A stretch of 64,000 nucleotides of DNA, from positions 20,030,173 through 20,094,172 of the forward strand of contig CM067311.1 in the NCBI GenBank assembly GCA_034231615.1, given 5' to 3'. Both the position numbers and the translations under genes were made by a program. This DNA comes from Meghimatium bilineatum. Taxonomy: Eukaryota > Mollusca > Gastropoda > Stylommatophora > Philomycidae. The stretch's first letter is position 1, and each line of letters opens with the position of its first letter. The notes beneath the pieces are model-generated. The model made no database searches. It saw only the letters and a list, made by a program, of their open reading frames with translations, and was not told the DNA's origin. Below, piece by piece: positions 1 through 64,000 of the stretch.

Positions 1-429
1 GCTTACTACACCAGAATTTGTAGTCTGGACACACGCATTTGGTGTATTCCAGCTTACTACGTAAAAACTCAGTGTTCTATGGAATATTACTCACAAATTG
101 GGTGTACTGCAGCTTACTACACCAGAATTTGTAGTCTGGACACACGCATTTGGTATAGTCCAGCTTACTACGTTAGAACTCGGAGTTTTCTGGCATATTA
201 CAAATTCATTGTACTGCAGCTTACTACACCAGAATTTGTAGTCTGGACACACGCATTTGGTGTATTCCAGCTTACTACGTTAGGACTCGGAGTTTTCTGG
301 CATATTACTCACAAATTCATTGTACTGAAGCTTACTACACTAGAATTGATTGTATTCTGGCCTATTATACATGATTCTGTTGTATTGCAGCATAATACGT
401 AAGAACACTGGCGTATTACACACAAATTA
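1..429 (+). repeat. Partial 499-bp module at left edge
   Basis: Starts inside A (1-40), then B/E hybrid 41-100, A 101-151, B56 152-207, C/A hybrid 208-258, B 259-318, C 319-378 and a D2/D1 chimera 379-429. The B56 copy reads GGTATAGTCC, a variant otherwise seen in zone II 499-bp modules (9210, 12051, 13490). Unlike the next two 499-bp modules it is not followed by a 280-bp module, so the array lost that module here. Confidence 0.85.
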
Positions 430-2150
430 GGTCTTGCTGTTTAGTATGTCAAAAGTCAGTGTTCTATGGCATATTACTCACAAATTGGGTGTACTGCAGC
501 TTACTACACCAGAATTTGTAGTCTGGACACACGCATTTGGTGTATTCAAGCTTAATACGTTAGAACTCGGTGTTTTCTGGCATATTACTCACAAATTGGG
601 TGTACTGCAGCTTACTACACCAGAATTTGTAGTCTGGACACACGCAATTGGTGTATTCCAGCTTACTTCGTTAGAACTCGGTGTTTTCTGGCATATTACT
701 CACAAATTCATTGTACTGAAGCTTACTACACTAGAATTGAGTGTATTCTGGCCTATTATACATGATTCTGTTGTATTGCAGCATAATACGTAAGAACACT
801 GGCGTATTGCACACAAATTAGGTCTCTTGCTGTTTAGTACGTCAAAACTCAGTGTTCTGTGGAATATTACTCACAAATTGGGTGTACTGCAGCTTACTAC
901 ACCAGAATTTGTAGTCTGGACACGCATTTGGTGTATTCCAGCTTACTACGTTAGAACTCGGTGTTTTCTGGCATATTACTCACAAATTGGGTGTACTGCA
1001 GCTTACTACACCAGAATTTGTAGTCTGGACACACGCATTTGGTGTATTCCAGCTTACTACGTTAGAACTCGGTGTTTTCTGGCATATTACTCACAAATTC
1101 ATTGTACTGAAGCTTACTACACTAGAATTGAGTGTATTCTGGCCTATTATACATGATTATGTTGTATTGCAGCATAATACGTCAGAATACTGGCGTATTA
1201 CACACAAATTAGGTCTTGCTGTTTAGTATGTCAAAAGTCAGTGTTCTATGGCATATTACTCACAAATTGGGTGTACTGCAGCTTACTACACCAGAATTTG
1301 TAGTCTGGACACACGCATTTGGTGTATTCAAGCTTAATACGTAAGAACACTGGCGTATTGCACACAAATTAGGTCTCTTGCTGTTTAGTACGTCAAAACT
1401 TAGTGTTCTGTGGAATATTACTCACAAATTGGTGTACTGCAGCTTACTACACCAGAATTTGTAGTCTGGACACACGCATTTGGTGTATTCCAGCTTACTA
1501 CGTAAAAACTCAGTGTTCTATGGAATATTACTCACAAATTGGGTGTACTGCAGCTTACTACACCAGAATTTGTAGTCTGGACACACGCATTTGGTGTAGT
1601 CCAGCTTACTACGTTAGAACTCGGAGTTTTCTGGCATATTACAAATTCATTGTACTGCAGCTTACTACACCAGAATTTGTAGTCTGGACACACGCATTTG
1701 GTGTATTCCAGCTTACTACGTTAGGACTCGGAGTTTTCTGGCATATTACTCACAAATTCATTGTACTGAAGCTTACTACACTAGAATTGATTGTATTCTG
1801 GCCTATTATACATGATTCTGTTGTATTGCAGCATAATACGTCAGAATACTGGCGTATTACACACAAATTAGGTCTTGCTGTTTAGTATGTCAAAACTCAG
1901 TGTTTTCTGGCATATTACTCACAAATTGGGTGTACTGCAGCTTACTACACCAGAATTTGTAGTCTGGACACACGCATTTGGTGTATTCCAGCTTACTACG
2001 TTAGAACTCGGTGTTTTCTGGCATATTACTGACAAATTCATTGTATTGAAGCTTACTACACTAGAATTGATTGTATTCTGGCCTATTACACATGACTTCG
2101 TTGTTTTGCAGATTGATACGTAAGAACACTGGCGTATTACACACACATTA
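430..2150 (+). repeat. 1721-bp HOR, copy 1
   Basis: Modules start at 430 (391 bp), 821 (391, with A49), 1212 (160), 1372 (499) and 1871 (280). The sum is exactly 1721. The next 1721 bp repeat the same order and appear nearly identical; a visible difference is CTTACTTCG at 661-670 against CTTACTACG in copy 2. Confidence 0.92.
1372..1870 (+). repeat. 499-bp module (type example)
   Basis: Composition: E60* 1372-1431, A50 1432-1481, B/E hybrid 1482-1541, A 1542-1592, B56 1593-1648, C/A hybrid 1649-1699 (ATTGTACTGCAG then A sequence), B 1700-1759, C 1760-1819, D2 1820-1870. The length equals E plus four 111-bp dimers minus 1 bp (A50) and minus 4 bp (B56). Fourteen copies start at 1372, 3093, 5320, 6761, 8988, 11822, 13261, 20491, 26045, 30826, 32434, 35651, 45567 and 56758. 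It is a convenient start point for the HOR of each zone. Confidence 0.88.
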
Positions 2151-3871
2151 GGTCTTGCTGTTTAGTATGTCAAAAGTCAGTGTTCTATGGCATATTACTC
2201 ACAAATTGGGTGTACTGCAGCTTACTACACCAGAATTTGTAGTCTGGACACACGCATTTGGTGTATTCAAGCTTAATACGTTAGAACTCGGTGTTTTCTG
2301 GCATATTACTCACAAATTGGGTGTACTGCAGCTTACTACACCAGAATTTGTAGTCTGGACACACGCAATTGGTGTATTCCAGCTTACTACGTTAGAACTC
2401 GGTGTTTTCTGGCATATTACTCACAAATTCATTGTACTGAAGCTTACTACACTAGAATTGAGTGTATTCTGGCCTATTATACATGATTCTGTTGTATTGC
2501 AGCATAATACGTAAGAACACTGGCGTATTGCACACAAATTAGGTCTCTTGCTGTTTAGTACGTCAAAACTCAGTGTTCTGTGGAATATTACTCACAAATT
2601 GGGTGTACTGCAGCTTACTACACCAGAATTTGTAGTCTGGACACGCATTTGGTGTATTCCAGCTTACTACGTTAGAACTCGGTGTTTTCTGGCATATTAC
2701 TCACAAATTGGGTGTACTGCAGCTTACTACACCAGAATTTGTAGTCTGGACACACGCATTTGGTGTATTCCAGCTTACTACGTTAGAACTCGGTGTTTTC
2801 TGGCATATTACTCACAAATTCATTGTACTGAAGCTTACTACACTAGAATTGAGTGTATTCTGGCCTATTATACATGATTATGTTGTATTGCAGCATAATA
2901 CGTCAGAATACTGGCGTATTACACACAAATTAGGTCTTGCTGTTTAGTATGTCAAAAGTCAGTGTTCTATGGCATATTACTCACAAATTGGGTGTACTGC
3001 AGCTTACTACACCAGAATTTGTAGTCTGGACACACGCATTTGGTGTATTCAAGCTTAATACGTAAGAACACTGGCGTATTGCACACAAATTAGGTCTCTT
3101 GCTGTTTAGTACGTCAAAACTTAGTGTTCTGTGGAATATTACTCACAAATTGGTGTACTGCAGCTTACTACACCAGAATTTGTAGTCTGGACACACGCAT
3201 TTGGTGTATTCCAGCTTACTACGTAAAAACTCAGTGTTCTATGGAATATTACTCACAAATTGGGTGTACTGCAGCTTACTACACCAGAATTTGTAGTCTG
3301 GACACACGCATTTGGTGTAGTCCAGCTTACTACGTTAGAACTCGGAGTTTTCTGGCATATTACAAATTCATTGTACTGCAGCTTACTACACCAGAATTTG
3401 TAGTCTGGACACACGCATTTGGTGTATTCCAGCTTACTACGTTAGGACTCGGAGTTTTCTGGCATATTACTCACAAATTCATTGTACTGAAGCTTACTAC
3501 ACTAGAATTGATTGTATTCTGGCCTATTATACATGATTCTGTTGTATTGCAGCATAATACGTCAGAATACTGGCGTATTACACACAAATTAGGTCTTGCT
3601 GTTTAGTATGTCAAAACTCAGTGTTTTCTGGCATATTACTCACAAATTGGGTGTACTGCAGCTTACTACACCAGAATTTGTAGTCTGGACACACGCATTT
3701 GGTGTATTCCAGCTTACTACGTTAGAACTCGGTGTTTTCTGGCATATTACTGACAAATTCATTGTATTGAAGCTTACTACACTAGAATTGATTGTATTCT
3801 GGCCTATTACACATGACTTCGTTGTTTTGCAGATTGATACGTAAGAACACTGGCGTATTACACACACATTA
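2151..3871 (+). repeat. 1721-bp HOR, copy 2
   Basis: Modules start at 2151 (391), 2542 (391), 2933 (160), 3093 (499) and 3592 (280). Both copies end in the private variant ATTACACACACATTAGG (about 2137 and 3858), in place of the usual ACACAAATTAGG, so this mutation predates the duplication. Confidence 0.92.
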
Positions 3872-4937
3872 GGTCTTGCTGTTTAGTATGTCAAATGTCA
3901 GTGTTCTATGGCATATTACTCACAAATTGGGTGTACTGCAGCTTACTACACCAGAATTTGTAGTCTGGACACACGCATTTGGTGTATTCCAGCTTACTAC
4001 GTTAGAACTCGGTGTTTTCTGGCATATTACTCACAAATTGGGTGTACTGCAGCTTACTACACCAGAATTTGTAGTCTGGACACACGCAATTGGTGTATTC
4101 CAGCTTACTACGTTAGAACTCGGTGTTTTCTGGCATATTACTCACAAATTCATTGTACTGAAGCTTACAACACTAGAATTGAGTGTATTCTGGCATATTA
4201 CACATGACTTCGTTGTTTTGCAGCTTAATACGTAAGAACACTGGCGTATTGCACACAAATTAGGTCTCTTGCTGTTTAGTACGTCAAAACTCAGTGTTCT
4301 GTGGAATATTACTCACAAATTGGGTGTACTGCAGCTTACTACACCAGAATTTGTAGTCTGGACACACGCATTTGGTGTATTCCAGCTTACTACGTTAGAA
4401 CTCGGTGTTTTCTGGCATATTACTCACAAATTGGGTGTACTGCAGCTTACTACACCAGAATTTGTAGTCTGGACACACGCAATTGGTGTATTCCAGCTTT
4501 CTACGTTAGAACTCGGTGTTTTCTGGCATATTACTCACAAATTCATTGTACTGAAGCTTACAACACTAGAATTGAGTGTATTCTGGCATATTACACATGA
4601 CTTCGTTGTTTTGCAGCTTAATACGTAAGAACACTGGCGTATTGCACAAAAATTAGGTCTCTTGCTGTTTAGTACGTCAGAACTCAGTGTTCTGTGGAAT
4701 ATTACTCACAAATTGGGTGTACTGCAGCTTACTACACCAGAATTTGTAGTCTGGACACACGCATTTGGTGTATTCCAGCTTACTACGTTAGAACTCGGTG
4801 TTTTCTGGCATATTACTGACAAATTCATTGTACTGAAGCTTACTACACTAGAATTGATTGTATTCTGGCCTATTGCACATGACTTCGTTGTTTTGCAGAT
4901 TGATACGTACGAACACTGGCGTATTACACACAAATTA
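3872..4937 (+). repeat. Modules 391, 393, 282 with zone III signatures
   Basis: Modules start at 3872 (391, E58 with AAATGTCAG), 4263 (393) and 4656 (282). The 393-bp module carries B'' (CAGCTTTCTACG at about 4493-4504) and ends GCACAAAAATTAGG. The 282-bp module has GTCAGAACTC and D3 with TAC. This set is otherwise typical of zone III, more than 33 kb away. Confidence 0.88.
4887..4937 (+). repeat. Sub-monomer D, type D3, 51 bp (type example)
   Basis: D3 carries ATTGATACGTA(A/C)GAACAC and GCGTATTACACAC and is followed by E58. This copy has TAC at the variable codon; many others, for example the D closing module 1871-2150, have TAA. D3 closes the 278-, 280- and 281-bp modules and many 282-bp modules of zone III. 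Confidence 0.86.
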
Positions 4938-13260: not shown

Positions 13261-16200
13261 GGTCTCTTGCTGTTTAGTACGTCAAAACTTAGTGTTCTGT
13301 GGAATATTACTCACAAATTGGTGTACTGCAGCTTACTACACCAGAATTTGTAGTCTGGACACACGCATTTGGTGTATTCCAGCTTACTACGTAAAAACTC
13401 AGTGTTCTATGGAATATTACTCACAAATTGGGTGTACTGCAGCTTACTACACCAGAATTTGTAGTCTGGACACACGCATTTGGTATAGTCCAGCTTACTA
13501 CGTTAGAACTCGGAGTTTTCTGGCATATTACAAATTCATTGTACTGCAGCTTACTACACCAGAATTTGTAGTCTGGACACACGCATTTGGTGTATTCCAG
13601 CTTACTACGTTAGGACTCGGAGTTTTCTGGCATATTACTCACAAATTCATTGTACTGAAGCTTACTACACTAGAATTGATTGTATTCTGGCCTATTATAC
13701 ATGATTCTGTTGTATTGCAGCATAATACGTCAGAATACTGGCGTATTACACACAAATTAGGTCTTGCTGTTTAGTATGTCAAAACTCTGTTTTCTGGCAT
13801 ATTACTCACAAATTGGGTGTACTGCAGCTTACTACACCAGAATTTGTAGTCTGGACACACGCATTTGGTGTATTCCAGCTTACTACGTTAGAACTCGGTG
13901 TTTTCTGGCATATTACTGACAAATTCATTGTATTGAAGCTTACTACACTAGAATTGATTGTATTCTGGCCTATTACACATGACTTCGTTGTTTTGCAGAT
14001 TGATACGTAAGAACACTGGCGTATTACACACAAATTAGGTCTTGCTGTTTAGTATGTCAAAAGTCAGTGTTCTATGGCATATTACTCACAAATTGGGTGT
14101 ACTGCAGCTTACTACACCAGAATTTGTAGTCTGGACACACGCATTTGGTGTATTCAAGCTTAATACGTTAGAACTCGGTGTTTTCTGGCATATTACTCAC
14201 AAATTGGGTGTACTGCAGCTTACTACACCAGAATTTGTAGTCTGGACACACGCAATTGGTGTATTCCAGCTTACTACGTTAGAACTCGGTGTTTTCTGGC
14301 ATATTACTCACAAATTCATTGTACTGAAGCTTACAACACTAGAATTGAGTGTATTCTGGCATATTACACATGCCTTCGTTGTTTTGCAGCTTAATACGTA
14401 AGAACACTGGCGTATTGCACACAAATTAGGTCTCTTGCTGTTTAGTACGTCAAAACTCAGTGTTCTGTGGAATATTACTCACAAATTGGGTGTACTGCAG
14501 CTTACTACACCAGAATTTGTAGTCTGGACAAGCCTTTGGTGTATTCCAGCTTACTACGTTAGAACTCGGTGTTTTCTGGCATATTACTCACAAATTGGGT
14601 GTACTGCAGCTTACTACACCAGAATTTGTAGTCTGGACACACGCATTTGGTGTATTCCAGCTTACTACGTTAGAACTCGGTGTTTTCTGGCATATTACTC
14701 ACAAATTCATTGTACTGAAGCTTACTACACTAGAATTGAGTGTATTCTGGCCTATTATACATGATTATGTTGTATTGCAGCATAATACGTCAGAATACTG
14801 GCGTATTACACACAAATTAGGTCTTGCTGTTTAGTACGTCACAACTCAGTGTTCTATGGCATATTACTCACAAATTGGGTGTACTGCAGCTTACTACACC
14901 AGAATTTGTAGTCTGGACACACGCATTTGGTGTATTCAAACTTAATACGTAAGAACACTTGCGTATTGCACACAATTTAGGTCTCTTGCTGTTTAGTACG
15001 TCAAAACTTAGTGTTCTGTGGAATATTACTCACAAATTGGTGTACTGCAGCTTACTACACCAGAATTTGTAGTCTGGACACACGCATTTGGTGTATTCCA
15101 GCTTACTACGTTAGAACTCGGTGTTTTCTGGCATATTACTGACAAATTCATTGTACTGAAGCTTACTACACTAGAATTGATTGTATTCTGGCCTATTACA
15201 CATGACTTCGTTGTTTTGCAGATTGATACGTAAGAACACTGGCGTATTACACACAAATTAGGTCTTGCTGTTTAGTATGTCAAAAGTCAGTGTTCTATGG
15301 CATATTACTCACAAATTGGGTGTACTGCAGCTTACTACACCAGAATTTGTAGTCTGGACACACGCATTTGGTGTATTCAAGCTTAATACGTTAGAACTCG
15401 GTGTTTTCTGGCATATTACTCACAAATTGGGTGTACTGCAGCTTACTACACCAGAATTTGTAGTCTGGACACACGCAATTGGTGTATTCCAGCTTACTAC
15501 GTTGGAACTCGGTGTTTTCTGGCATATTACTCACAAATTCATTGTACTGAAGCTTACAACACTAGAATTGAGTGTATTCTGGCATATTACACATGACTTC
15601 GTTGTTTTGCAGCTTAATACGTAAGAACACTGGCGTATTGCACACAAATTAGGTCTCTTGCTGTTTAGTACGTCAAAACTCAGTGTTCTGTGGAATATTA
15701 CTCACAAATTGGGTGTACTGCAGCTTACTGCACCAGAATTTGTAGTCTGGACACACGCATTTGGTGTATTCCAGCTTACTACGGTAGAACTCGGTGTTTT
15801 CTGGCATATTACTCACAAATTGGGTGTACTGCAGCTTACTACACCATAATTTGTAGTCTAGACACACGCAATTGGTGTATTCCAGCTTACTACGTTAGAA
15901 CTCGGTGTTTTCTGGCATATTACTGACAAATTCATTGTACTGAAGCTTACACTAGAATTGATTGTATTCTGGCCTATTACACATGACTTCGTTGTTTTGC
16001 AGCTTGATACGTAAGAACACTGGCGTATTGCACACAAATTAGGTCTCTTGCTGTTTGGTACGTCAAAACTCAGTGTTCTGTGGAATATTACTCACAAATT
16101 AGGTGTACTGCAGCTTACTACACCAGAATTTGTAGTCTGGACACACGCATTTGGTGTAGTCCAGCTTACTACGTTAGAACTCCGAGATTTCTGGCATATT

Positions 16201-16594
16201 ACTCACAAATTCATTGTACTGAAGCTTACTACACTAGAATTGATTGTATTCTGGCCTATTATACATGATTCTGTTGTATTGCAGCATAATACGTCAGAAT
16301 ACTGGCGTATTACACACAAATTAGGTCTTGCTGTTTAGTATGTCAAAACTCAGTGTTTTCTGGCATATTACTCACAAATTGGGTGTACTGCAGCTTACTA
16401 CACCAGAATTTGTAGTCTGGACACACGCAATTGGTGTATTCCAGCTTACTACGTTAGAACTCGGTGTTTTCTGGCATATTACTCACAAATTGGGTGTACT
16501 GCAGCTTACTACACCAGAATTTGTAGTCTGGACACACGCATTTGGTGTATTCAAGCTTAATACGTAAGAACACTGGCGTATTGCACACAAATTA
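13261..16594 (+). repeat. 3334-bp HOR, copy 1
   Basis: Modules start at 13261 (499), 13760 (278), 14038 (391), 14429 (391), 14820 (160), 14980 (281), 15261 (391), 15652 (390), 16042 (282) and 16324 (271). The same ten modules in the same order recur at 20491-23824 (shift 7230). Point differences include CTCCGAGATTTC here against CTCCGAGTTTTC in copy 2. Confidence 0.9.
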
Positions 16595-40656: not shown

Positions 40657-41048
40657 GGTCTCTTGCTGTTTAGTACGTCAAAACTTAGTGTTCTGTGGAA
40701 TATTACTCACAAATTGGTGTACTGCAGCTTACTACACCAGAATTTGTAGTCTGGACACACGCATTTGGTGTATTCCAGCTTACTACGTTAGAACTCGGTG
40801 TTTTCTGGCATATTACTCACAAATTGGGTGTACTGCAGCTTACTACACCAGAATTTGTAGTCTGGACACACGCAATTGGTGTATTCCAGCTTTCTACGTT
40901 AGAACTCGGTGTTTTCTGGCATATTACTCACAAATTCATTGTACTGAAGCTTACAACACTAGAATTGAGTGTATTCTGGCATATTACACATGACTTCGTT
41001 GTTTTGCAGCTTAATACGTAAGAACACTGGCGTATTGCACACAAATTA
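40657..41048 (+). repeat. 392-bp module opening the R block
   Basis: E60*, A50, B, A', B'', C, D1. It lacks the B/E hybrid and corresponds to 53917-54308 (shift 13260). Confidence 0.86.
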
Positions 41049-45406: not shown

Positions 45407-48341
45407 GGTCTTGCTGTTTAGTATGTCAAAAGTCAGTGTTCTATGGCATATTACTCACAAATTGGGTGTACTGCAGCTTACTACACCAGAATTTGTAGTC
45501 TGGACAGACGCATTTGGTGTATTCAAGCTTAATACGTAAGAACACTGGCGTATTGCACACAAATTAGGTCTCTTGCTGTTTAGTACGTCAAAACTTAGTG
45601 TTCTGTGGAATATTACTCACAAATTGGTGTACTGCAGCTTACTACACCAGAATTTGTAGTCTGGACACACGCATTTGGTGTATTCCAGCTTACTACGTAA
45701 AAACTCAGTGTTCTATGGAATATTACTCACAAATTGGGTGTACTGCAGCTTACTACACCAGAATTTGTAGTCTGGACACACGCATTTGGTGTAGTCCAGC
45801 TTACTACGTTAGAACTCGGAGTTTTCTGGCATATTACAAATTCATTGTTATGCAGCTTACTACACCAGAATTTGTAGTCTGGACACACGCATTTGGTGTA
45901 TTCCAGCTTACAACGTTAGGACTCGGAGTTTTCTGGCATATTACTCACAAATTCATTGTACTGAAGCTTACTACACTAGAATTGATTGCATTCTGGCCTA
46001 TTATACATGATTCTGTTGTATTGCAGCATAATACGTCAGAATACTGGCGTATTACACACAAATTAGGTCTTGCTGTTTAGTATGTCAAAACTCAGTGTTT
46101 TCTGGCATATTACTCACAAATTGGGTGTACTGCAGCTTACTACACCAGAATTTGTAGTCTGGACACACGCATTTGGTGTATTCCAGCTTACTACGTTAGA
46201 ACTCGGTGTTTTCTGGCATATTACTGACAAATTCATTGTATTGAAGCTTACTACACTAGAATTGATTGTATTCTGGCCTATTACACATGACTTCGTTGTT
46301 TTGCAGATTGATACGTAAGAACACTGGCGTATTACACACAAATTAGGTCTTGCTGTTTAGTATGTCAAATGTCAGTGTTCTATGGCATATTACTCACAAA
46401 TTGGGTGTACTGCAGCTTACTACACCAGAATTTGTAGTCTGGACACACGCATTTGGTGTATTCCAGCTTACTACGTTAGAACTCGGTGTTTTCTGGCATA
46501 TTACTCACAAATTGGGTGTACTGCAGCTTACTACACCAGAATTTGTAGTCTGGACACACGCAATTGGTGTATTCCAGCTTACTACGTTAGAACTCGGTGT
46601 TTTCTGGCATATTACTCACAAATTCATTGTACTGAAGCTTACAACACTAGAATTGAGTGTATTCTGGCATATTACACATGACTTCGTTGTTTTGCAGCTT
46701 AATACGTAAGAACACTGGCGTATTGCACACAAATTAGGTCTCTTGCTGTTTAGTACGTCAAAACTCAGTGTTCTGTGGAATATTACTCACAAATTGGGTG
46801 TACTGCAGCTTACTACACCAGAATTTGTAGTCTGGACACACGCATTTGGTGTATTCCAGCTTACTACGTTAGAACTCGGTGTTTTCTGGCATATTACTCA
46901 CAAATTGGGTGTACTGCAGCTTACTACACCAGAATTTGTAGTCTGGACACACGCATTTGGTGTATTCCAGCTTACTACGTTAGAACTCGGTGTTTTCTGG
47001 CATATTACTCACAAATTCATTGTACTGAAGCTTACTACACTAGAATTGAGTGTATTCTGGCCTATTATACATGATTATGTTGTATTGCAGCATAATACGT
47101 CAGAATACTGGCGTATTACACACAAATTAGGTCTTGCTGTTTAGTACGTAAAAACTCAGTGTTCTATGGCATATTACTCACAAATTGGGTGTACTGCAGC
47201 TTACTACACCAGAATTTGTAGTCTGGACACACGCATTTGGTGTATTCAAGCTTAATACGTAAGAACATTGGCGTATTGCACACAAATTAGGTCTCTTGCT
47301 GTTTAGTACGTCAAAACTTAGTGTTCTGTGGAATATTACTCACAAATTGGTGTACTGCAGCTTACTACACCAGAATTTGTAGTCTGGACACACGCATTTG
47401 GTGTATTCCAGCTTACTACGTCAAAACTCAGTGTTCTATGGAATATTACTCACAAATTGGGTGTACTGCAGCTTACTACACCAGAATGTGTAGTCTGGAG
47501 ACACGCATTTGGAGTATTCCAGCTTACTACGTTAGAACTCGGTGTTCTGTGGTATATTACTCACAAATTCATTGTACTGAAGCTTACTACGCTAGAATTG
47601 ATTGTATTCTGGCCTATTATACATGATTCTGTTGTTTTGCAGATTGATACGTAAGAACACTGGCGTATTACACACAAATTAGGTCTTGCTGTTTAGTATG
47701 TCAAAACTCAGTGTTTTCTGGCATATTACTCACAAATTGGGTGTACTGCAGCTTACTACACCAGAATTTGTAGTCTGGACACACGCATTTGGTGTATTCC
47801 AGCTTACTACGTTAGAACTCGGTGTTCTGTGGAATATTACTCACAAATTGGGTGTACTGCAGCTTACTACACCAGAATTTGTAGTCTGGACACGCATTTG
47901 GTGTATTCCAGCTTACTACGTTAGAACTCGGTGTTTTCTGGCATATTACTCACAAATTGGGTGTACTGCAGCTTACTACACCAGAATTTGTAGTCTGGAC
48001 ACACGCATTTGGTGTATTCCAGCTTACTACGTTAGAACTCGGTGTTTTCTGGCATATTACTCACAAATTCATTATACTGAAGCTTACTACACTAGAATTG
48101 AGTGTATTCTGGCCTATTATACATGATTCTGTTGTTTTGCAGATTGATACGTAAGAACACTGGCGTATTACACACAAATTAGGTCTTGCTGTTTAGTATG
48201 TCAAAACTCAGTGTTTTCTGGCATATTACTCACAAATTGGGTGTACTGCAGCTTACTACACCAGAATTTGTAGTCTGGACACACGCATTTGGTGTATTCA
48301 AGCTTAATACGTAAGAACACTGGCGTATTGCACACAAATTA
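45407..48341 (+). repeat. P block of super-repeat copy 1
   Basis: Modules start at 45407 (160), 45567 (499), 46066 (280), 46346 (391), 46737 (393), 47130 (160), 47290 (392), 47682 (500) and 48182 (160). The order 160-499-280-391-393-160-392-160 is the one seen in the 3217-bp HOR. The 500-bp module (E58 with four dimers) is absent from the homologous P block at 56598. A private GTTATGCAGC in the 499-bp module is shared with 56758. Confidence 0.88.
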
Positions 48342-51073
48342 GGTCTCTTGCTGTTTAGTACGTCAAAACTTAGTGTTCTGTGGAATATTACTCACAAATT
48401 GGTGTACTGCAGCTTACTACACCAGAATTTGTAGTCTGGACACACGCATTTGGTGTATTCCAGCTTACTACGTTAGAACTCGGTGTTTTCTGGCATATTA
48501 CTGACAAATTCATTGTACTGAAGCTTACTACACTAGAATTGATTGTATTCTGGCCTATTACAAATGACTTCGTTGTTTTGCAGATTGATACGTACGAACA
48601 CTGGCGTATTACACACAAATTAGGTCTTGCTGTTTAGTATGTCAAAAGTCAGTGTTCTATGGCATATTACTCACAAATTGGGTGTACTGCAGCTTACTAC
48701 ACCAGAATTTGTAGTCTGGACACACGCATTTGGTGTATTCAAGCTTAATACGTTAGAACTCGGTGTTTTCTGGCATATTACTCACAAATTGGGTGTACTG
48801 CAGCTTACTACACCAGAATTTGTAGTCTGGACACACGCAATTGGTGTATTCCAGCTTACTACGTTAGAACTCGATGTTTTCTGGCATATTACTCACAAAT
48901 TCATTGTACTGAAGCTTACAACACTAGAATTGAGTGTATTCTGGCATATTACACATGACTTCGTTGTTTTGCAGCTTAATACGTAAGAACACTGGCGTAT
49001 TGCACACAAATTAGGTCTCTTGCTGTTTAGTACGTCAAAACTCAGTGTTCTGTGGAATATTACTCACAAATTGGGTGTACTGCAGCTTACTACACCAGAA
49101 TTTGTAGTCTGGACACACGCATTTGGTGTATTCCAGCTTACTACGTTAGAACTCGGTGTTTTCTGGCATATTACTCACAAATTGGGTGTACTGCAGCTTA
49201 CTACACCAGAATTTGTAGTCTGGACACACGCAATTGGTGTATTCCAGCTTTCTACGTTAGAACTCGGTGTTTTCTGGCATATTACTCACAAATTCATTGT
49301 ACTGAAGCTTACAACACTAGAATTGAGTGTATTCTGGCATATTACACATGACTTCGTTGTTTTGCAGCTTAATACGTAAGAACACTGGCGTATTGCACAC
49401 AAATTAGGTCTCTTGCTGTTTAGTACGTCAGAACTCAGTGTTCTGTGGAATATTACTCACAAATTGGGTGTACTGCAGCTTACTACACCAGAATTTGTAG
49501 TCTGGACACACGCATTTGGTGTATTCCAGCTTACTACGTTAGAACTCGGTGTTTTCTGGCATATTACTGACAAATTCATTGTACTGAAGCTTACTACACT
49601 AGAATTGATTGTATTCTGGCCTATTACACATGACTTCGTTGTTTTGCAGATTGATACGTACGAACACTGGCGTATTACACACAAATTAGGTCCTGCTGTT
49701 TAGTATGTCAAAAGTCAGTGTTCTATGGCATATTACTCACAAATTGGGTGTACTGCAGCTTACTACACCAGAATTTGTAGTCTGGACAAACGCATTTGGT
49801 GTATTCCAGCTTACTACGTTAGAACTCGGTGTTTTCTGGCATATTACTCACAAATTAGGTGTACTGCAGCTTACTACACCAGAATTTGTAGTCTGGACAC
49901 ACGCAATTGGTGTATTCCAGCTTTCTACGTTAGAACTCGGTGTTTTCTGGCATATTACTCACAAATTCATTGTACTGAAGCTTACAACACTAGAATTGAG
50001 TGTATTCTGGCATATTACACATGACTTCGTTGTTTTGCAGCTTAATACGTAAGAACACTGGCGTATTGCACAATAATTAGGTCTCTTGCTGTTTAGTACG
50101 TCAGAACTCAGTGTTCTGTGGAATATTACTCACAAATTGGGTGTACTGCAGCTTACTACACCAGAATTTGTAGTCTGGACACACGCATTTGGTGTATTCC
50201 AGCTTACTACGTTAGAACTCGGTGTTCTCTGGCATATTACTCACAAATTCATTGTACTGAAGCTTACTACACTAGAATTGAGTGTATTCTGGCCTATTAT
50301 ACATGATTATGTTGTATTGCAGCATAATACGTCAGAATACTGGCGTATTACACACAAATTAGGTCTTGCTGTTTAGTACGTCACAACTCAGTGTTCTATG
50401 GCATATTACTCACAAATTGGGTGTACTGCAGCTTACTACACCAGAATTTGTAGTCTGGACACACGCATTTGGTGTATTCAAGCTTAATACGTAAGAACAC
50501 TGGCGTATTGCACACAAATTAGGTCTCTTGCTGTTTAGTACGTCAAAACTTAGTGTTCTGTGGAATATTACTCACAAATTGGTGTACTGCAGCTTACTAC
50601 ACCAGAATTTGTAGTCTGGACACACGCATTTGGTGTATTCCAGCTTACTACGTCAAAACTCAGTGTTCTATGGAATATTACTCACAAATTGGGTGTACTG
50701 CAGCTTACTACACCAGAATGTGTAGTCTGGACACACGCATTTGGAGTATTCCAGCTTACTACGTTAGAACTCGGTGTTCTGTGGTATATTACTCACAAAT
50801 TCATTGTACTGAAGCTTACTACACTAGAATTGATTGTATTCTGGCCTATTATACATGATTCTGTTGTTTTGCAGATTGATACGTAAGAACACTGGCGTAT
50901 TACACACAAATTAGGTCTTGCTGTTTAGTATGTCAAAACTCAGTGTTTTCTGGCATATTACTCACAAATTGGGTGTACTGCAGCTTACTACACCAGAATT
51001 TGTAGTCTGGACACACGCATTTGGTGTATTCAAGCTTAATACGTAAGAACACTGGCGTATTGCACACAAATTA
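48342..51073 (+). repeat. 2732-bp Q unit, copy 2
   Basis: Modules start at 48342 (281), 48623 (391), 49014 (393), 49407 (282), 49689 (391), 50080 (282), 50362 (160), 50522 (392) and 50914 (160). Unique changes are CTCGATGTTTTC near 48873, GCACAATAATTAGG near 50068 and GTTCTCTGGCAT near 50225. Confidence 0.9.
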
Positions 51074-53916
51074 GGTCTCTTGCTGTTTAGTACGTCAAAA
51101 CTTAGTGTTCTGTGGAATATTACTCACAAATTGGTGTACTGCAGCTTACTACACCAGAATTTGTAGTCTGGACACACGCATTTGGTGTATTCCAGCTTAC
51201 TACGTTAGAACTCGGTGTTTTCTGGCATATTACTGACAAATTCATTGTACTGAAGCTTACTACACTAGAATTGATTGTATTCTGGCCTATTACAAATGAC
51301 TTCGTTGTTTTGCAGATTGATACGTACGAACACTGGCGTATTACACACAAATTAGGTCTTGCTGTTTAGTATGTCAAAAGTCAGTGTTCTATGGCATATT
51401 ACTCACAAATTGGGTGTACTGCAGCTTACTACACCAGAATTTGTAGTCTGGACACACGCATTTGGTGTATTCAAGCTTAATACGTTAGAACTCGGTGTTT
51501 TCTGGCATATTACTCACAAATTGGGTGTACTGCAGCTTACTACACCAGAATTTGTAGTCTGGACACACGCAATTGGTGTATTCCAGCTTACTACGTTAGA
51601 ACTCGGTGTTTTCTGGCATATTACTCACAAATTCATTGTACTGAAGCTTACAACACTAGAATTGAGTGTATTCTGGCATATTACACATGACTTCGTTGTT
51701 TTGCAGCTTAATACGTAAGAACACTGGCGTATTGCACACAAATTAGGTCTCTTGCTGTTTAGTACGTCAAAACTCAGTGTTCTGTGGAATATTACTCACA
51801 AATTGGGTGTACTGCAGCTTACTACACCAGAATTTGTAGTCTGGACACACGCATTTGGTGTATTCCAGCTTACTACGTTAGAACTCGGTGTTTTCTGGCA
51901 TATTACTCACAAATTGGGTGTACTGCAGCTTACTACACCAGAATTTGTAGTCTGGACACACGCAATTGGTGTATTCCAGCTTTCTACGTTAGAACTCGGT
52001 GTTTTCTGGCATATTACTCACAAATTCATTGTACTGAAGCTTACAACACTAGAATTGAGTGTATTCTGGCATATTACACATGACTTCGTTGTTTTGCAGC
52101 TTAATACGTAAGAACACTGGCGTATTGCACACAAATTAGGTCTCTTGCTGTTTAGTACGTCAGAACTCAGTGTTCTGTGGAATATTACTCACAAATTGGG
52201 TGTACTGCAGCTTACTACACCAGAATTTGTAGTCTGGACACACGCATTTGGTGTATTCCAGCTTACTACGTTAGAACTCGGTGTTTTCTGGCATATTACT
52301 GACAAATTCATTGTACTGAAGCTTACTACACTAGAATTGATTGTATTCTGGCCTATTACACATGACTTCGTTGTTTTGCAGATTGATACGTACGAACACT
52401 GGCGTATTACACACAAATTAGGTCCTGCTGTTTAGTATGTCAAAAGTCAGTGTTCTATGGCATATTACTCACAAATTGGGTGTACTGCAGCTTACTACAC
52501 CAGAATTTGTAGTCTGGACAAACGCATTTGGTGTATTCCAGCTTACTACGTTAGAACTCGGTGTTTTCTGGCATATTACTCACAAATTAGGTGTACTGCA
52601 GCTTACTACACCAGAATTTGTAGTCTGGACACACGCAATTGGTGTATTCCAGCTTTCTACGTTAGAACTCGGTGTTTTCTGGCATATTACTCACAAATTC
52701 ATTGTACTGAAGCTTACAACACTAGAATTGAGTGTATTCTGGCATATTACACATGACTTCGTTGTTTTGCAGCTTAATACGTAAGAACACTGGCGTATTG
52801 CACAAAAATTAGGTCTCTTGCTGTTTAGTACGTCAGAACTCAGTGTTCTGTGGAATATTACTCACAAATTGGGTGTACTGCAGCTTACTACACCAGAATT
52901 TGTAGTCTGGACACACGCATTTGGTGTATTCCAGCTTACTACGTTAGAACTCGGTGTTTTCTGGCATATTACTCACAAATTCATTGTACTGAAGCTTACT
53001 ACACTAGAATTGAGTGTATTCTGGCCTATTATACATGATTATGTTGTATTGCAGCATAATACGTCAGAATACTGGCGTATTACACACAAATTAGGTCTTG
53101 CTGTTTAGTACGTCACAACTCAGTGTTCTATGGCATATTACTCACAAATTGGGTGTACTGCAGCTTACTACACCAGAATTTGTAGTCTGGACACACGCAT
53201 TTGGTGTATTCAAGCTTAATACGTAAGAACACTGGCGTATTGCACACAAATTAGGTCTCTTGCTGTTTAGTACGTCAAAACTTAGTGTTCTGTGGAATAT
53301 TACTCACAAATTGGTGTACTGCAGCTTACTACACCAGAATTTGTAGTCTGGACACACGCATTTGGTGTATTCCAGCTTACTACGTCAAAACTCAGTGTTC
53401 TATGGAATATTACTCACAAATTGGGTGTACTGCAGCTTACTACACCAGAATGTGTAGTCTGGACACACGCATTTGGTGTATTCCAGCTTACTACGTCAAA
53501 ACTCAGTGTTCTATGGAATATTACTCACAAATTGGGTGTACTGCAGCTTACTACACCAGAATGTGTAGTCTGGACACACGCATTTGGAGTATTCCAGCTT
53601 ACTACGTTAGAACTCGGTGTTCTGTGGTATATTACTCACAAATTCATTGTACTGAAGCTTACTACACTAGAATTGATTGTATTCTGGCCTATTATACATG
53701 ATTCTGTTGTTTTGCAGATTGATACGTAAGAACACTGGCGTATTACACACAAATTAGGTCTTGCTGTTTAGTATGTCAAAACTCAGTGTTTTCTGGCATA
53801 TTACTCACAAATTGGGTGTACTGCAGCTTACTACACCAGAATTTGTAGTCTGGACACACGCATTTGGTGTATTCAAGCTTAGTACGTAAGAACACTGGCG
53901 TATTGCACACAAATTA
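51074..53916 (+). repeat. 2732-bp Q unit, copy 3 (expanded to 2843 bp)
   Basis: Modules start at 51074 (281), 51355 (391), 51746 (393), 52139 (282), 52421 (391), 52812 (282), 53094 (160), 53254 (503) and 53757 (160). It directly follows copy 2 in tandem. The 503-bp module is the 392-bp module with one additional 111-bp B/E plus A pair, both carrying AATGTGTAGTC. Confidence 0.9.
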
Positions 53917-56597
53917 GGTCTCTTGCTGTTTAGTACGTCAAAACTTAGTGTTCTGTGGAATATTACTCACAAATTGGTGTACTGCAGCTTACTACACCAG
54001 AATTTGTAGTCTGGACACACGCATTTGGTGTATTCCAGCTTACTACGTTAGAACTCGGTGTTTTCTGGCATATTACTCACAAATTGGGTGTACTGCAGCT
54101 TACTACACCAGAATTTGTAGTCTGGACACACGCAATTGGTGTATTCCAGCTTTCTACGTTAGAACTCGGTGTTTTCTGGCATATTACTCACAAATTCATT
54201 GTACTGAAGCTTACAACACTAGAATTGAGTGTATTCTGGCATATTACACATGACTTCGTTGTTTTGCAGCTTAATACGTAAGAACACTGGCGTATTGCAC
54301 ACAAATTAGGTCTCTTGCTGTTTAGTACGTCAGAACTCAGTGTTCTGTGGAATATTACTCACAAATTGGGTGTACTGCAGCTTACTACACCAGAATTTGT
54401 AGTCTGGACACACGCATTTGGTGTATTCCAGCTTACTACGTTAGAACTCGGTGTTTTCTGGCATATTACTGACAAATTCATTGTACTGAAGCTTACTACA
54501 CTAGAATTGATTGTATTCTGGCCTATTACACATGACTTCGTTGCTTTGCAGATTGATACGTACGAACACTGGCGTATTACACACAAATTAGGTCCTGCTG
54601 TTTAGTATGTCAAAAGTCAGTGTTCTATGGCATATTACTCACAAATTGGGTGTACTGCAGCTTACTACACCAGAATTTGTAGTCTGGACACACGCATTTG
54701 GTGTATTCCAGCTTACTACGTTAGAACTCGGTGTTTTCTGGCATATTACTCACAAATTAGGTGTACTGCAGCTTACTACACCAGAATTTGTAGTCTGGAC
54801 ACACGCAATTGGTGTATTCCAGCTTTCTACGTTAGAACTCGGTGTTTTCTGGCATATTACTCACAAATTCATTGTACTGAAGCTTACAACACTAGAATTG
54901 AGTGTATTCTGGCATATTACCTATGACTTCGTTGTTTTGCAGCTTAATACGTAAGAACACTGGCGTATTGCACAAAAATTAGGTCTCTTGCTGTTTAGTA
55001 CGTCAGAACTCAGTGTTCTGTGGAATATTACTCACAAATTGGGTGTACTGCAGCTTACTACACCAGAATTTGTAGTCTGGACACACGCATTTGGTGTATT
55101 CCAGCTTACTACGTTAGAACTCGGTGTTTTCTGGCATATTACTCACAAATTCATTGTACTGAAGCTTACTACACTAGAATTGAGTGTATTCTGGCCTATT
55201 ATACATGATTATGTTGTATTGCAGCATAATACGTCAGAATACTGGCGTATTACACACAAATTAGGTCTTGCTGTTTAGTACGTCACAACTCAGTGTTCTA
55301 TGGCATATTACTCACAAATTGGGTGTACTGCAGCTTACTACACCAGAATTTGTAGTCTGGACACACGCATTTGGTGTATTCAAGCTTAATACGTAAGAAC
55401 ACTGGCGTATTGCACACAAATTAGGTCTCTTGATGTTTAGTACGTCAAAACTTAGTGTTCTGTGGAATATTACTCACAAATTGGTGTACTGCAGCTTACT
55501 ACACCAGAATTTGTAGTCTGGACACACGCATTTGGTGTATTCCAGCTTACTACGTTAGAACTCGGTGTTTTCTGGCATATTACTGACAAATTCATTGTAC
55601 TGAAGCTTACTACACTAGAATTGATTGTATTCTGGCCTATTACAAATGACTTCGTTGTTTTGCAGATTGATACGTAAGAACACTGGCGTATTACACACAA
55701 ATTAGGTCTTGCTGTTTAGTATGTCAAAAGTCAGTGTTCTATGGCATATTACTCACAAATTGGGTGTACTGCAGCTTACTACACCAGAATTTGTAGTCTG
55801 GACACACGCATTTGGTGTATTCAAGCTTAATACGTTAGAACTCGGTGTTTTCTGGCATATTACTCACAAATTGGGTGTACTGCAGCTTACTACACCAGAA
55901 TTTGTAGTCTGGACACACGCAATTGGTGTATTCCAGCTTACTACGTTAGAACTCGGTGTTTTCTGGCATATTACTCACAAATTCATTGTACTGAAGCTTA
56001 CAACACTATAATTGAGTGTATTCTGGCATATTACACATGACTTCGTTGTTTTGCAGCTTAATACGTAAGAACACTGGCGTATTGCACACAAATTAGGTCT
56101 CTTGCTGTTTAGTACGTCAAAACTCAGTGTTCTGTGGAATATTACTCACAAATTGGGTGTACTGCAGCTTACTACACCAGAATTTGTAGTCTGGACACAC
56201 GCATTTGGTGTATTCCAGCTTACTACGTTAGAACTCGGTGTTCTGTGGAATATTACTCACAAATTGGGTGTACTGCAGCTTACTACACCAGAATTTGTAG
56301 TCTGGACACGCATTTGGTGTATTCCAGCTTACTACGTTAGAACTCGGTGTTTTCTGGCATATTACTCACAAATTGGGTGTACTGCAGCTTACTACACCAG
56401 AATTTGTAGTCTGGACACACGCATTTGGTGTATTCCAGCTTACTACGTTAGAACTCGGTGTTTTCTGGCATATTACTCACAAATTCATTATACTGAAGCT
56501 TACTACACTAGAATTGAGTGTATTCTGGCCTATTATACATGATTATGTTGTATTGCAGCATAATACGTCAGAATACTGGCGTATTACACACAAATTA
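53917..56597 (+). repeat. R block of super-repeat copy 2
   Basis: Modules start at 53917 (392), 54309 (282), 54591 (391), 54982 (282), 55264 (160), 55424 (281), 55705 (391) and 56096 (502). It matches 40657-42835 with a shift of 13260 and 44905-45406 with 11191. The 2069-bp unit is single here. It has CTTGATGTTTAG but not CAGCTTGCTAC or CTGGCCAATTAC. A private CACTATAATTG lies near 56004. Confidence 0.89.
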
Positions 56598-59032
56598 GGT
56601 CTTGCTGTTTAGTATGTCAAAAGTCAGTGTTCTATGGCATATTACTCACAAATTGGGTGTACTGCAGCTTACTACACCAGAATTTGTAGTCTGGACACAC
56701 GCATTTGGTGTATTCAAGCTTAATACGTAAGAACACTGGCGTATTGCACACAAATTAGGTCTCTTGCTGTTTAGTACGTCAAAACTTAGTGTTCTGTGGA
56801 ATATTACTCACAAATTGGTGTACTGCAGCTTACTACACCAGAATTTGTAGTCTGGACACACGCATTTGGTGTATTCCAGCTTACTACGTAAAAACTCAGT
56901 GTTCTATGGAATATTACTCACAAATTGGGTGTACTGCAGCTTACTACACCAGAATTTGTAGTCTGGACACACGCATTTGGTGTAGTCCAGCTTACTACGT
57001 TAGAACTCGGAGTTTTCTGGCATATTACAAATTCATTGTTATGCAGCTTACTACACCAGAATTTGTAGTCTGGACACACGCATTTGGTGTATTCCAGCTT
57101 ACTACGTTAGGACTCGGAGTTTTCTGGCATATTACTCACAAATTCATTGTACTGAAGCTTACTACACTAGAATTGATTGCATTCTGGCCTATTATACATG
57201 ATTCTGTTGTATTGCAGCATAATACGTCAGAATACTGGCGTATTACACACAAATTAGGTCTTGCTGTTTAGTATGTCAAAACTCAGTGTTTTCTGGCATA
57301 TTACTCACAAATTGGGTGTACTGCAGCTTACTACACCAGAATTTGTAGTCTGGACACACGCATTTGGTGTATTCCAGCTTACTACGTTAGAACTCGGTGT
57401 TTTCTGGCATATTACTGACAAATTCATTGTATTGAAGCTTACTACACTAGAATTGATTGTATTCTGGCCTATTACACATGACATCGTTGTTTTGCAGATT
57501 GATACGTAAGAACACTGGCGTATTACACACAAATTAGGTCTTGCTGTTTAGTATGTCAAAAGTCAGTGTTCTATGGCATATTACTCACAAATTGGGTGTA
57601 CTGCAGTTTACTACACCAGAATTTGTAGTCTGGACACACGCATTTGGTGTATTCCAGCTTACTACGTTAGAACTCGGTGTTTTCTGGCATATTACTCACA
57701 AATTGGGTGTACTGCAGCTTACTACACCAGAATTTGTAGTCTGGACACACGCAATTGGTGTATTCCAGCTTACTACGTTAGAACTCGGTGTTTTCTGGCA
57801 TATTACTCACAAATTCATTGTACTGAAGCTTACAACACTAGAATTGAGTGTATTCTGGCATATTACACATGACTTCGTTGTTTTGCAGCTTAATACGTAA
57901 GAACACTGGCGTATTGCACACAAATTAGGTCTCTTGCTGTTTAGTACGTCAAAACTCAGTGTTCTGTGGAATATTACTCACAAATTGGGTGTACTGCAGC
58001 TTACTACACCAGAATTTGTAGTCTGGACACACGCATTTGGTGTATTCCAGCTTACTACGTTAGAACTCGGTGTTTTCTGGCATATTACTCACAAATTGGG
58101 TGTACTGCAGCTTACTACACCAGAATTTGTAGTCTGGACACACGCATTTGGTGTATTCCAGCTTACTACGTTAGAACTCGGTGTTTTCTGGCATATTACT
58201 CACAAATTCATTGTACTGAAGCTTACTACACTAGAATTGAGTGTATTCTGGCCTATTATACATGATTATGTTGTATTGCAGCATAATACGTCAGAATACT
58301 GGCGTATTACACACAAATTAGGTCTTGCTGTTTAGTACGTCAAAACTCAGTGTTCTATGGCATATTACTCACAAATTGGGTGTACTGCAGCTTACTACAC
58401 CAGAATTTGTAGTCTGGACACACGCATTTGGTGTATTCAAGCTTAATACGTAAGAACATTGGCGTATTGCACACAAATTAGGTCTCTTGCTGTTTAGTAC
58501 GTCAAAACTTAGTGTTCTGTGGAATATTACTCACAAATTGGTGTACTGCAGCTTACTACACCAGAATTTGTAGTCTGGACACACGCATTTGGTGTATTCC
58601 AGCTTACTACGTCAAAACTCAGTGTTCTATGGAATATTACTCACAAATTGGGTGTACTGCAGCTTACTACACCAGAATGTGTAGTCTGGACACACGCATT
58701 TGGAGTATTCCAGCTTACTACGTTAGAACTCGGTGTTCTGTGGTATATTACTCACAAATTCATTGTACTGAAGCTTACTACGCTAGAATTGATTGTATTC
58801 TGGCCTATTATACATGATTCTGTTGTTTTGCAGATTGATACGTAAGAACACTGGCGTATTACACACAAATTAGGTCTTGCTGTTTAGTATGTCAAAACTC
58901 AGTGTTTTCTGGCATATTACTCACAAATTGGGTGTACTGCAGCTTACTACACCAGAATTTGTAGTCTGGACACACGCATTTGGTGTATTCAAGCTTAATA
59001 CGTAAGAACACTGGCGTATTGCACACAAATTA
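56598..59032 (+). repeat. P block of super-repeat copy 2
   Basis: Modules start at 56598 (160), 56758 (499), 57257 (280), 57537 (391), 57928 (393), 58321 (160), 58481 (392) and 58873 (160). It is collinear with 45407-48341 except for the missing 500-bp module. GACATCGTTG near 57480 and CTGCAGTTTAC near 57601 are private. Confidence 0.89.
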
Positions 59033-62389: not shown

Positions 62390-62499
62390 GGTCTCTTGCT
62401 GTTTAGTACGTCAAAACTTAGTGTTCTGTGGAATATTACTCACACATTGGTGTACTGCAGCTTACTACACCAGAATTTGTAGTCTGGACACACGCATTT

Positions 62500-62559
62500 G
62501 GTGTATTCCAGCTTACTACGTCAAAACTCAGTGTTCTATGGAATATTACTCACAAATTG
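62500..62559 (+). repeat. Recombinant B/E sub-monomer, 60 bp (type example)
   Basis: The left part is B (GGTGTATTCCAGCTTACTAC) and the right part is E (GTCAAAACTCAGTGTTCTATG then GAATATTACTC). The switch is at TACGT, common to both. Zone I and II copies and all 499-bp modules read TACGTAAAAACTC, while copies in the zone III 392-bp modules read TACGTCAAAACTC. The hybrid sits second in the 499-bp modules and in many 392-bp modules. Confidence 0.82.
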
Positions 62560-64000
62560 GGTGTACTGCAGCTTACTACACCAGAATGTGTAGTCTGGAC
62601 ACACGCATTTGGAGTATTCCAGCTTACTACGTTAGAACTCGGTGTTCTGTGGTATATTACTCACAAATTCATTGTACTGAAGCTTACTACGCTAGAATTG
62701 ATTGTATTCTGGCCTATTATACATGATTCTGTTGTTTTGCAGATTGATACGTAAGAACACTGGCGTATTACACACAAATTAGGTCTTGCTGTTTAGTATG
62801 TCAAAACTCAGTGTTTTCTGGCATATTACTCACAAATTGGGTGTACTGCAGCTTACTACACCAGAATTTGTAGTCTGGACACACTCATTTGGTGTATTCA
62901 AGCTTAATACGTAAGAACACTGGCGTATTGCACACAAATTAGGTCTCTTGCTGTTTAGTACGTCAAAACTTAGTGTTCTTTGGAATATTACTCACAAATT
63001 GGTGTACTGCAGCTTACTACACCAGAATTTGTAGTCTGGACACACGCATTTGGTGTATTCCAGCTTACTACGTTAGAACTCGGTGTTTTCTGGCATATTA
63101 CTGACAAATTCATTGTACTGAAGCTTACTACACTAGAATTGATTGTATTCTGGCCTATTACAAATGACTTCGTTGTTTTGCAGATTGATACGTACGAACA
63201 CTGGCGTATTACACACAAATTAGGTCTTGCTGTTTAGTATGTCAAAAGTCAGTGTTCTATGGCATATTACTCACAAATTGGGTGTACTGCAGCTTACTAC
63301 ACCAGAATTTGTAGTCTGGACACACGCAATTGGTGTATTCCAGCTTACTACGTTAGAACTCGGTGTTTTCTGGCATATTACTCACAAATTCATTGTACTG
63401 AAGCTTACAACACTAGAATTGAGTGTATTCTGGCATATTACACATGACTTCGTTGTTTTGCAGCTTAATACGTAAGAACACTGGCGTATTGCATACAAAT
63501 TAGGTCTCTTGCTGTTTAGTACGTCAAAACTCAGTGTTCTGTGGAATATTACTCACAAATTGGGTGTACTGCAGCTTACTACACCAGAATTTGTAGTCTG
63601 GACACACGCATTTGGTGTATTCCAGCTTACTACGTTAGAACTCGGTGTTTTCTGGCATATTACTCACAAATTGGGTGTACTGCAGCTTACTACACCAGAA
63701 TTTGTAGTCTGGACACACGCAATTGGTGTATTCCAGCTTTCTACGTTAGAACTCGGTGTTTTCTGGCATATTACTCACAAATTCATTGTACTGAAGCTTA
63801 CAACACTAGAATTGAGTGTATTCTGGCATATTACACATGACTTCGTTGTTTTGCAGCTTAATACGTAAGAACACTGGCGTATTGCACACAAATTAGGTCT
63901 CTTGCTGCTTAGTACGTCAGAACTCAGTGTTCTGTGGAATATTACTCACAAATTGGGTGTACTGCAGCTTACTACACCAGAATTTGTAGTCTGGACACAC

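What the first reader, a model, noticed from the sequence alone, without database searches (positions are those of the whole stretch)
1..64000. A 64-kb pure satellite with at least five nested levels of repetition
Sub-monomer (51/60 bp), dimer (111 bp), module (160-606 bp), HOR (1.4-4.8 kb) and super-repeat (8-10 kb) can all be read from the sequence. Depth of nesting with no interruption over 64 kb is unusual, and I do not recognise the family, so it may be an undescribed satellite.
Basis: partly seen in the sequence, partly recalled or inferred. Interest (0 to 1): 0.8.

Follow-up and report, generated by a model that had tools for sequence, protein, structure and literature searches.

The report
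Nested centromere-like satellite in a mollusc
This stretch is part of a megabase-long, possibly centromeric, repetitive DNA array of a mollusc, built from about 30-base units repeated inside ever larger units, much as human centromere DNA is; it is real and new to us, but of a known kind.

Summary
All 64,000 bases split without a gap into 2302 units of ten ~30-bp types (139 distinct sequences), alternating class A and class B in all but one of 2301 junctions. Two satellites share these units: 111 bp (cdab) and 171 bp (efghib). They interleave into 161-, 280- and 391-bp modules, 1.4-4.8-kb HORs, and super-repeats of 7.0-7.2 and 10.4-11.2 kb (not quite 8-10). The window lies at G000:C14 20.03-20.09 Mb of a 1.61-Gb genome; haemocyanin genes indicate a mollusc. 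On C14 the array runs from 19.793 to at least 20.879 Mb: HOR core, diverged 171-bp flanks. The family was found on six contigs, one interior zone each in the places listed; marker lists that reached C4-C6 and C9-C13 showed none there. One fusion module is confined to C14 (71 of 71 hits). Modules arose by in-register recombination between ~30-bp paralogues. Best reading: a (peri)centromeric satellite evolving as alpha satellite does, by convergence; kinetochore function untested. Known kind, new family as far as searched.

The parts
1..64000 (+). Part of one head-to-tail satellite array (G000:C14:20030173-20094172) that extends beyond both window ends
497..607 (+). Example of the 111-bp module (successive starts of the same 30-mer at 497 and 608)
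   Evidence: lag 111
1322..1351 (+). First a/g fusion unit (junction d-g) of the 161-bp module cdghij; 40 such junctions in the window
1900..1929 (+). The b unit at the first i-b junction (the order of the 171-bp satellite efghib, kept inside the HOR); 29 such junctions in the window
185..4794 (+). HOR copies at offset 1717 (185-3069 vs 1902-4794, 98.1%)
13394..31242 (+). Super-repeat 7.0-7.2 kb, about 2.5 copies (13394-20623, 20624-27624, 27625-31242)
31640..38123 (+). HOR of 3217 bp, two copies (31640-34906 vs 34857-38123), 99.6%; holds the longest exact repeat (2057 bp at 31729 and 34946)
37404..59012 (+). Super-repeat 10.4/11.2 kb, two copies (37404-47821, 47822-59012), 98.96% outside gaps
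53897..54961 (+). Three junctions seen once each: a-h at 53897, e-b at 54902, b-g at 54932

Best explanation
A (peri)centromeric satellite array of a mollusc, probably a gastropod. Shown: a ~30-bp unit gave two related classes, A and B, that alternate almost without exception; these built a 171-bp satellite (efghib), found on six contigs, and a 111-bp one (cdab). On C14 the two interleave, and recombination in the 60-bp register between ~30-bp paralogues made fusion modules that were copied into HORs and 7-11-kb blocks. The C14 core is homogeneous, holds a module found nowhere else, and is flanked by diverged 171-bp repeats. Inferred: the array is the (peri)centromere, the homogeneous core is where the kinetochore sits or recently sat, and unequal exchange or copying, not selection on the sequence, drives the nesting.
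For: A/B alternation: 1 exception of 2301 junctions in the window (at the truncated first unit), 0 of 5380 in C14 19.81-19.96 Mb, 4 of 140 in ten 400-base probes on C1, C2, C3 and C7; control flanks 17 of 30 and 10 of 28. Edit cost per base in those ten probes 0.108-0.226 against 0.421-0.443 for one shuffle each (ten units plus six flank forms). A-to-B unit identity 0.585 against a shuffle mean of 0.481 and maximum of 0.502 in 100. Fusion units: the two a/i forms and the a/g form (3 of 5 tested) fit a two-parent chimera with 0 mismatches, breakpoints within bases 13-21. The 101-base a/g module: 71 hits, 71 on C14, all +. C14 layering: flank, 17 kb of 171-bp units (random identity 0.910 over 77 units), sharp change at ~19,810,000 to HOR, HOR at every probe to 20.6 Mb, 171-bp units at 20.73-20.88, nothing at 21.0. 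One interior zone per contig in the places listed: C1 70.13-71.60, C2 44.32-45.82, C3 49.68-49.91, C7 22.11-23.39, C8 24.40-27.93, C14 19.79-20.88 Mb.
Against: No CenH3 mapping, FISH, methylation or Hi-C. The six contigs were found because markers hit them. Lists that reach C4-C6 and C9-C13 show no hit there; the markers are insensitive (the 50-mer misses C1, where a 120-mer has at least 100 hits), but a family on every chromosome is not shown. C8 is no simple core with two flanks: HOR 24.869-25.49, 171-bp units at 25.7 and 26.0, HOR marker again 26.38-26.82. Of the ten probes on C1, C2, C3 and C7 only 4 have 171 as best lag; the others 159, 166, 168 or 219. No CENP-B box (0; 19 with up to 2 mismatches, 38.7 expected). 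No CenH3 recognised in the 12 of 114 histone matches read (150 of 320 candidates scored). 2 of the 5 fusion units tested fit with 1 mismatch, one of them no better than its nearest single parent; no null was run for the chimera fit. Hairpin potential weak (z -0.21 to -1.85).
Confidence: 0.65

Rival explanations
1. Non-centromeric heterochromatic satellite block (a knob or arm band) present on some chromosomes, growing by unequal exchange, with no kinetochore.
For: No direct centromere evidence; no marker hits on C4-C6 and C9-C13 in the lists that reach them; two HOR blocks on C8.
Against: Where found, the family fills a single interior zone of 0.2-3.5 Mb in the places listed, in one main orientation, with a layered young core and old flanks on C14.
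Confidence: 0.27
2. Assembly artefact: repeats mis-ordered or duplicated by the assembler.
For: Duplicates of at least 1 kb and 99% cover 81.0% of the window; no reads were available.
Against: The longest exact repeat is 2057 bp, far below usual long-read length (recalled); the 10-11-kb copies differ by 108 mismatches and 911 gap columns; the grammar holds in 150 kb elsewhere on C14 and on other contigs.
Confidence: 0.04
3. Coding DNA for a repetitive protein (51, 60 and 111 are multiples of 3).
For: ORFs of up to 160 aa recur.
Against: The longest of the 170 ORFs listed (80 aa or more) is 160 aa; 161-, 280- and 391-bp modules break the frame.
Confidence: 0.01

Closest known systems
Human alpha satellite with cascading HORs (PMC11050224, passages read)
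   Same: Monomer types repeat inside one HOR copy; homogeneous, chromosome-specific HOR with diverged monomers at the edges (the last two recalled); a 171-bp period, here in the flanks.
   Different: Unrelated organism; ~30-bp A/B base unit; two satellites of different length (111 and 171) interleaved; no CENP-B box. The shared 171 bp is taken as coincidence (six units, one shortened).
Tribolium madens major/minor satellites (PMC13081366, abstract read)
   Same: One ~110-bp element gave two satellites that intermingle in multi-megabase, likely (peri)centromeric regions.
   Different: There arranged in macro-dyad symmetries; here no inverted copies in the window.
Switchgrass centromere HORs with truncated monomers (PMC4053949, passages read)
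   Same: HORs mixing complete and shortened monomers.
   Different: Plant; 175-bp monomer; fewer levels described.
PcH-sat of the limpet Patella caerulea (PMC11121367, passages read)
   Same: Gastropod satellite, AT-rich, monomer 179 bp, classed as centromeric by its authors.
   Different: The word 'higher-order' does not occur in its text; origin tied to a SINE; sequences not compared here.

Membership tests
Satellite DNA with higher-order repeats | Head-to-tail monomers of several diverged types | tested here: met
   2302 units, ten types, alternation broken once in 2301 junctions
Satellite DNA with higher-order repeats | Multi-monomer units repeated with far higher identity than the monomers within them | tested here: met
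   unit types A-A 0.68 and B-B 0.63 mean identity; the best HOR copies 99.0-99.6% over 3-5 kb, others down to 94-98%
Cascading HOR (PMC11050224 definition) | A monomer type occurs more than once within one HOR copy | tested here: met
   token string: cdab and efghij recur inside the 1.4-4.8-kb units
Alpha satellite | CENP-B box in the monomers | tested here: not met
   0 exact on both strands; 19 with up to 2 mismatches, 38.7 expected by chance
Alpha satellite | Alphoid 171-bp sequence | not tested
   no alphoid sequence was compared; only the period 171 in the flanks is shared
Centromeric DNA | Bound by CenH3 nucleosomes / kinetochore | not testable with these tools
   needs ChIP or CUT&RUN
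Centromeric DNA | One such zone on every chromosome | tested here: inconclusive
   zones on C1, C2, C3, C7, C8, C14; no marker hit on C4-C6 and C9-C13 in the lists that reach them; lists capped at 100 places, contigs after C14 reached only by the short lists
Centromeric DNA | Homogeneous core with older diverged flanks | tested here: met
   C14; on C8 only in part (two HOR blocks)

The most novel reading that the evidence does not exclude
A mollusc evolved, independently of primates, an alpha-satellite-like centromere: an older ~171-bp satellite shared by at least six chromosomes is being displaced on at least two of them by a younger 111-bp relative made of the same 30-bp units, and on C14 recombination between the two has built a chromosome-specific nested HOR core, a centromere takeover caught half-way.
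Probability: 0.3. Interest if true: 0.7.

Novelty: new member of a known kind. Interest (0 to 1): 0.48.

Why it matters
HOR evolution is known mainly from primates and some plants (recalled). An independent case whose fusion junctions can still be read base by base (a/i and a/g hybrids), with the presumed parent satellite present in the flanks and on other chromosomes, lets one test how nested HORs start (exchange in a fixed 60-bp register) and whether the young homogeneous core is where the kinetochore sits. It also gives molluscs a candidate centromere sequence.

Tried and rejected
Coding origin: rejected. RNA family: 0 Rfam matches at gathering scores. Prokaryote or virus: an exact 26-mer gave 0 matches in IMG/VR and in GTDB contigs. 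CENP-B box: absent. Macro-dyads as in Tribolium: no inverted copies in the window. Strong hairpins: only weak. CenH3: the 12 histone matches read (of 114) looked by eye like H3 pseudogenes, H2A or H2B, or were unclear; inconclusive. Winged insect: 7tm_6 gave 0 matches, but its control rang nowhere. Token-level proof of super-repeats: not above a second-order Markov null, so nucleotide identity was used. A simple core-and-flank model for C8: dropped. 'On every chromosome': dropped. Species: not found; the mitochondrial fragment L033 looks heterobranch by recall, and its ND4-tRNA-ND2-COX1 order would fit the Helicidae move of trnT-COX3 described in PMC7039129 (passages), but genes and tRNA were read by eye and ARAGORN, run with the bacterial code, found none.
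Full report
What is there. A string decomposition with ten ~30-bp unit consensuses covers the whole window without a gap: 2302 units, 139 distinct sequences, 1615 of them 30 bp and 503 of them 21 bp long. The units fall into class A (a, c, e, g, i; CAGCTTACTAC-like core) and class B (b, d, f, h, j; CTGGCATATTAC-like core, d and h shortened to 21 bp). A and B alternate with 1 exception in 2301 junctions, at the truncated first unit. A and B are themselves related: mean identity 0.585 against a shuffle mean of 0.481 and maximum of 0.502 in 100 shuffles.

Upper levels. The units form 325 words: cdabefghij (about 280 bp, 121 copies), cdab (107-111 bp, 102), cdghij (161 bp, 40), cdaj (111 bp, 29), cdabefghib (20), cdajefghib (8) and five words seen once each, one of them cut by the window end. 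Self-comparison (words of 100, at least 90% identity) gives 4556 HSPs, none inverted; the longest is 4958 bp at 99.5%. Tandem super-repeats are 7230/7001 bp (96.65% outside gaps, 515 gap columns) and 10,418/11,191 bp (98.96%, 911 gap columns); duplicates of at least 1 kb and 99% cover 81.0% of the window. The longest exact repeat is 2057 bp; 50 permutations that keep module order and pools give a mean of 685 and a maximum of 840. Against clean levels: as a string of module names, the longest repeat (21) is above plain shuffles (maximum 10 of 60) and a first-order Markov null (maximum 16 of 60) but within a second-order one (mean 14.9, maximum 26 of 60).

How modules arose. At the non-canonical junctions the units are hybrids. 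The two forms of a before j fit a/i chimeras and the g after d fits an a/g chimera, each with 0 mismatches and breakpoints within bases 13-21; their distances to the nearest single parent form are 3 and 7, 3 and 6, and 3 and 1, the last because variants of the same fusion were left in the g pool. The j before e and the single a before h fit with 1 mismatch; for that j the nearest single parent is also at distance 1. No null was run for these fits. The pattern says that A recombined with A at homologous positions, keeping the 60-bp register. Which route did it (unequal crossing-over, break-induced copying, slippage) cannot be told.

Where it lies. The window is G000:C14:20,030,173-20,094,172, + strand, in a 1,612,235,226-bp assembly of 32 contigs; C14 is 68.1 Mb. 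Reading 19.76-19.96 Mb without a break shows a flank with reverse-transcriptase-like ORFs (judged by eye), then from about 19,793,000 a 17-kb layer of 171-bp units, then a sharp change at about 19,810,000 to HOR. The layer is mostly (efghib)n: 3 alternation exceptions of 605, random unit identity 0.910; the HOR from 19.81 to 19.96 has 0 exceptions of 5380. Probes at 19.970, 19.978, 20.13, 20.20, 20.25, 20.30, 20.40, 20.50 and 20.60 Mb are HOR-like (78-100% of 13-mers shared with the window); 20.80 has 171-bp units; 21.0 is not satellite. Markers of the 171-bp form hit 20.727-20.742 and 20.862-20.879 (the list of 106 stops in C14). DNA between the probes was not read. Everything read on C14 is in one orientation.

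Other contigs. A 27-mer of the 111-bp form, absent from all seven flank samples, has 7485 forward and 233 reverse exact copies genome-wide; the 100 listed are all on C8 from 24.869 Mb, so C1-C7 have none if the list runs in contig order. Where the 233 reverse copies lie is unknown; since all that was read on C8 and C14 is forward, the 111-bp form may exist on further contigs. A rarer variant has 16 hits, listed whole: 14 on C8 (25.49 and 26.38-26.82 Mb), 2 on C14. The a/g fusion module (101-base pattern) has 71 hits, listed whole, all on C14 between 19.814 and 20.486 Mb. On C8 the probes at 25.2 and 25.4 Mb are pure (cdab)n, 24.905 is cdab with some efghib, and 25.7 and 26.0 have 171-bp units, so C8 holds at least two 111-bp blocks.

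Four markers of the 171-bp form: a 50-mer (842+145 copies; 100 listed, on C2 44.32-45.82, C3 49.68-49.91 and C7 from 22.11 Mb; none on C1 or C4-C6); a 120-mer (861+88; the 100 listed all on C1 70.13-71.59); a two-change variant (12 copies, listed whole: 7 on C7 23.37-23.39, 5 on C14); a one-change variant (335+39; 100 listed: C1 18 at 71.54-71.60, C2 1, C7 4, C8 48 at 24.40-27.93, C14 29; none on C3-C6 or C9-C13). So six contigs carry it for certain. For C4-C6 and C9-C13 the lists that reach them show none, but single exact markers miss contigs known to carry the family (the 50-mer misses C1, the one-change variant misses C3), so absence is not shown; contigs after C14 are hardly sampled, and the unlisted reverse copies suggest that some carry it.

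Ten 400-base probes inside the zones of C1, C2, C3 and C7 all belong to the family: edit cost 0.108-0.226 per base against 0.421-0.443 shuffled, 4 alternation exceptions of 140, against 0.436 and 17 of 30 and 10 of 28 for two control stretches. Their best lags are 171 in 4 of 10 and 159, 166, 168 or 219 in the other 6, so the A/B alternation, not the 171-bp length, is what all share. The C2 and C3 probes are in the reverse orientation.

Organism. Haemocyanin beta-sandwich domains (PF14830) gave 50 matches in two clusters, on C15 and C22; that this family is molluscan is recalled, and the 14 control genomes (0 hits), as far as named in the other searches, are prokaryotes, so they say little. 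A nuclear mitochondrial fragment (L033) looks gastropod by recall.

Interpretation. Shown: the unit hierarchy, fusion junctions, layering on C14, a module confined to C14, and one interior zone per carrying contig in the places listed. Inferred: that these zones are (peri)centromeres and that the homogeneous core hosts the kinetochore. The pattern works like alpha satellite, where crossovers are said to homogenise and expand arrays into domains (PMC2853522, abstract), but it is not filed as alpha satellite: the CENP-B box is absent and no alphoid sequence was compared. It meets the definition of a cascading HOR (PMC11050224, passages). The age order (171-bp older, 111-bp younger) rests on the wider spread of the 171-bp form and the lower identity of 171-bp units next to the cores (0.910 and 0.904) than of 111-bp units on C8 (0.965-0.977); against it, 171-bp units at three other probes are 0.943-0.958 alike (4-5 units each) and the window's own 111-bp units average 0.940. 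So the order is likely, not proved.

Print. Searches listed no description of this sequence in the open-access library; most subscription papers and all repeat libraries lie outside it. Papers: passages of PMC12328838, PMC7039129, PMC10407649, PMC12506671, PMC11050224, PMC11121367 and PMC4053949; abstract and outline of PMC13081366 and PMC2853522; no paper was read whole.

Noticed in passing
L012:370-2390 (C14 about 19.7904-19.7924 Mb): About 2 kb of degenerate AACACTACAAAACACT-like repeats just outside the left edge of the array, followed by what looks by eye like a piece of a reverse transcriptase gene.
   Followed up: no
L009, L010, L011 (C14 19.76-19.79 Mb): Several long ORFs that look by eye like non-LTR retrotransposon reverse transcriptase (up to 834 aa); those of L010 and L011 are near-identical copies.
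   Followed up: no
L033 (C2:121988305-121991928): Nuclear copy of a mitochondrial segment that reads as ND4 end, a tRNA-like piece, ND2 and COX1 without COX3 (genes named by eye).
   Followed up: partly
G000 C21 15.31-15.37, C23 39.13-39.19, C25 84.78-84.85 Mb: Three tandem histone gene clusters with a period near 4.5 kb.
   Followed up: no
G000 C15 48.69-49.24 and C22 44.15-44.27 Mb: Two haemocyanin gene clusters on different contigs, which would fit the genome duplication reported for land snails (PMC12328838, abstract start in the listing).
   Followed up: no
C14 19.793-19.810 Mb and L031:1-4050 on C8: The 171-bp flank layers have their own HOR-like periods, 2206 bp on C14 and 1365 bp on C8.
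   Followed up: no
G000 C8 (67.6 Mb) and C14 (68.1 Mb): The two contigs on which the 111-bp form was seen are nearly equal in length; whether they are duplicate partners was not tested.
   Followed up: no
G000, contigs not listed: 233 reverse copies of the 27-mer of the 111-bp form whose place is unknown; all that was read on C8 and C14 is forward.
   Followed up: no
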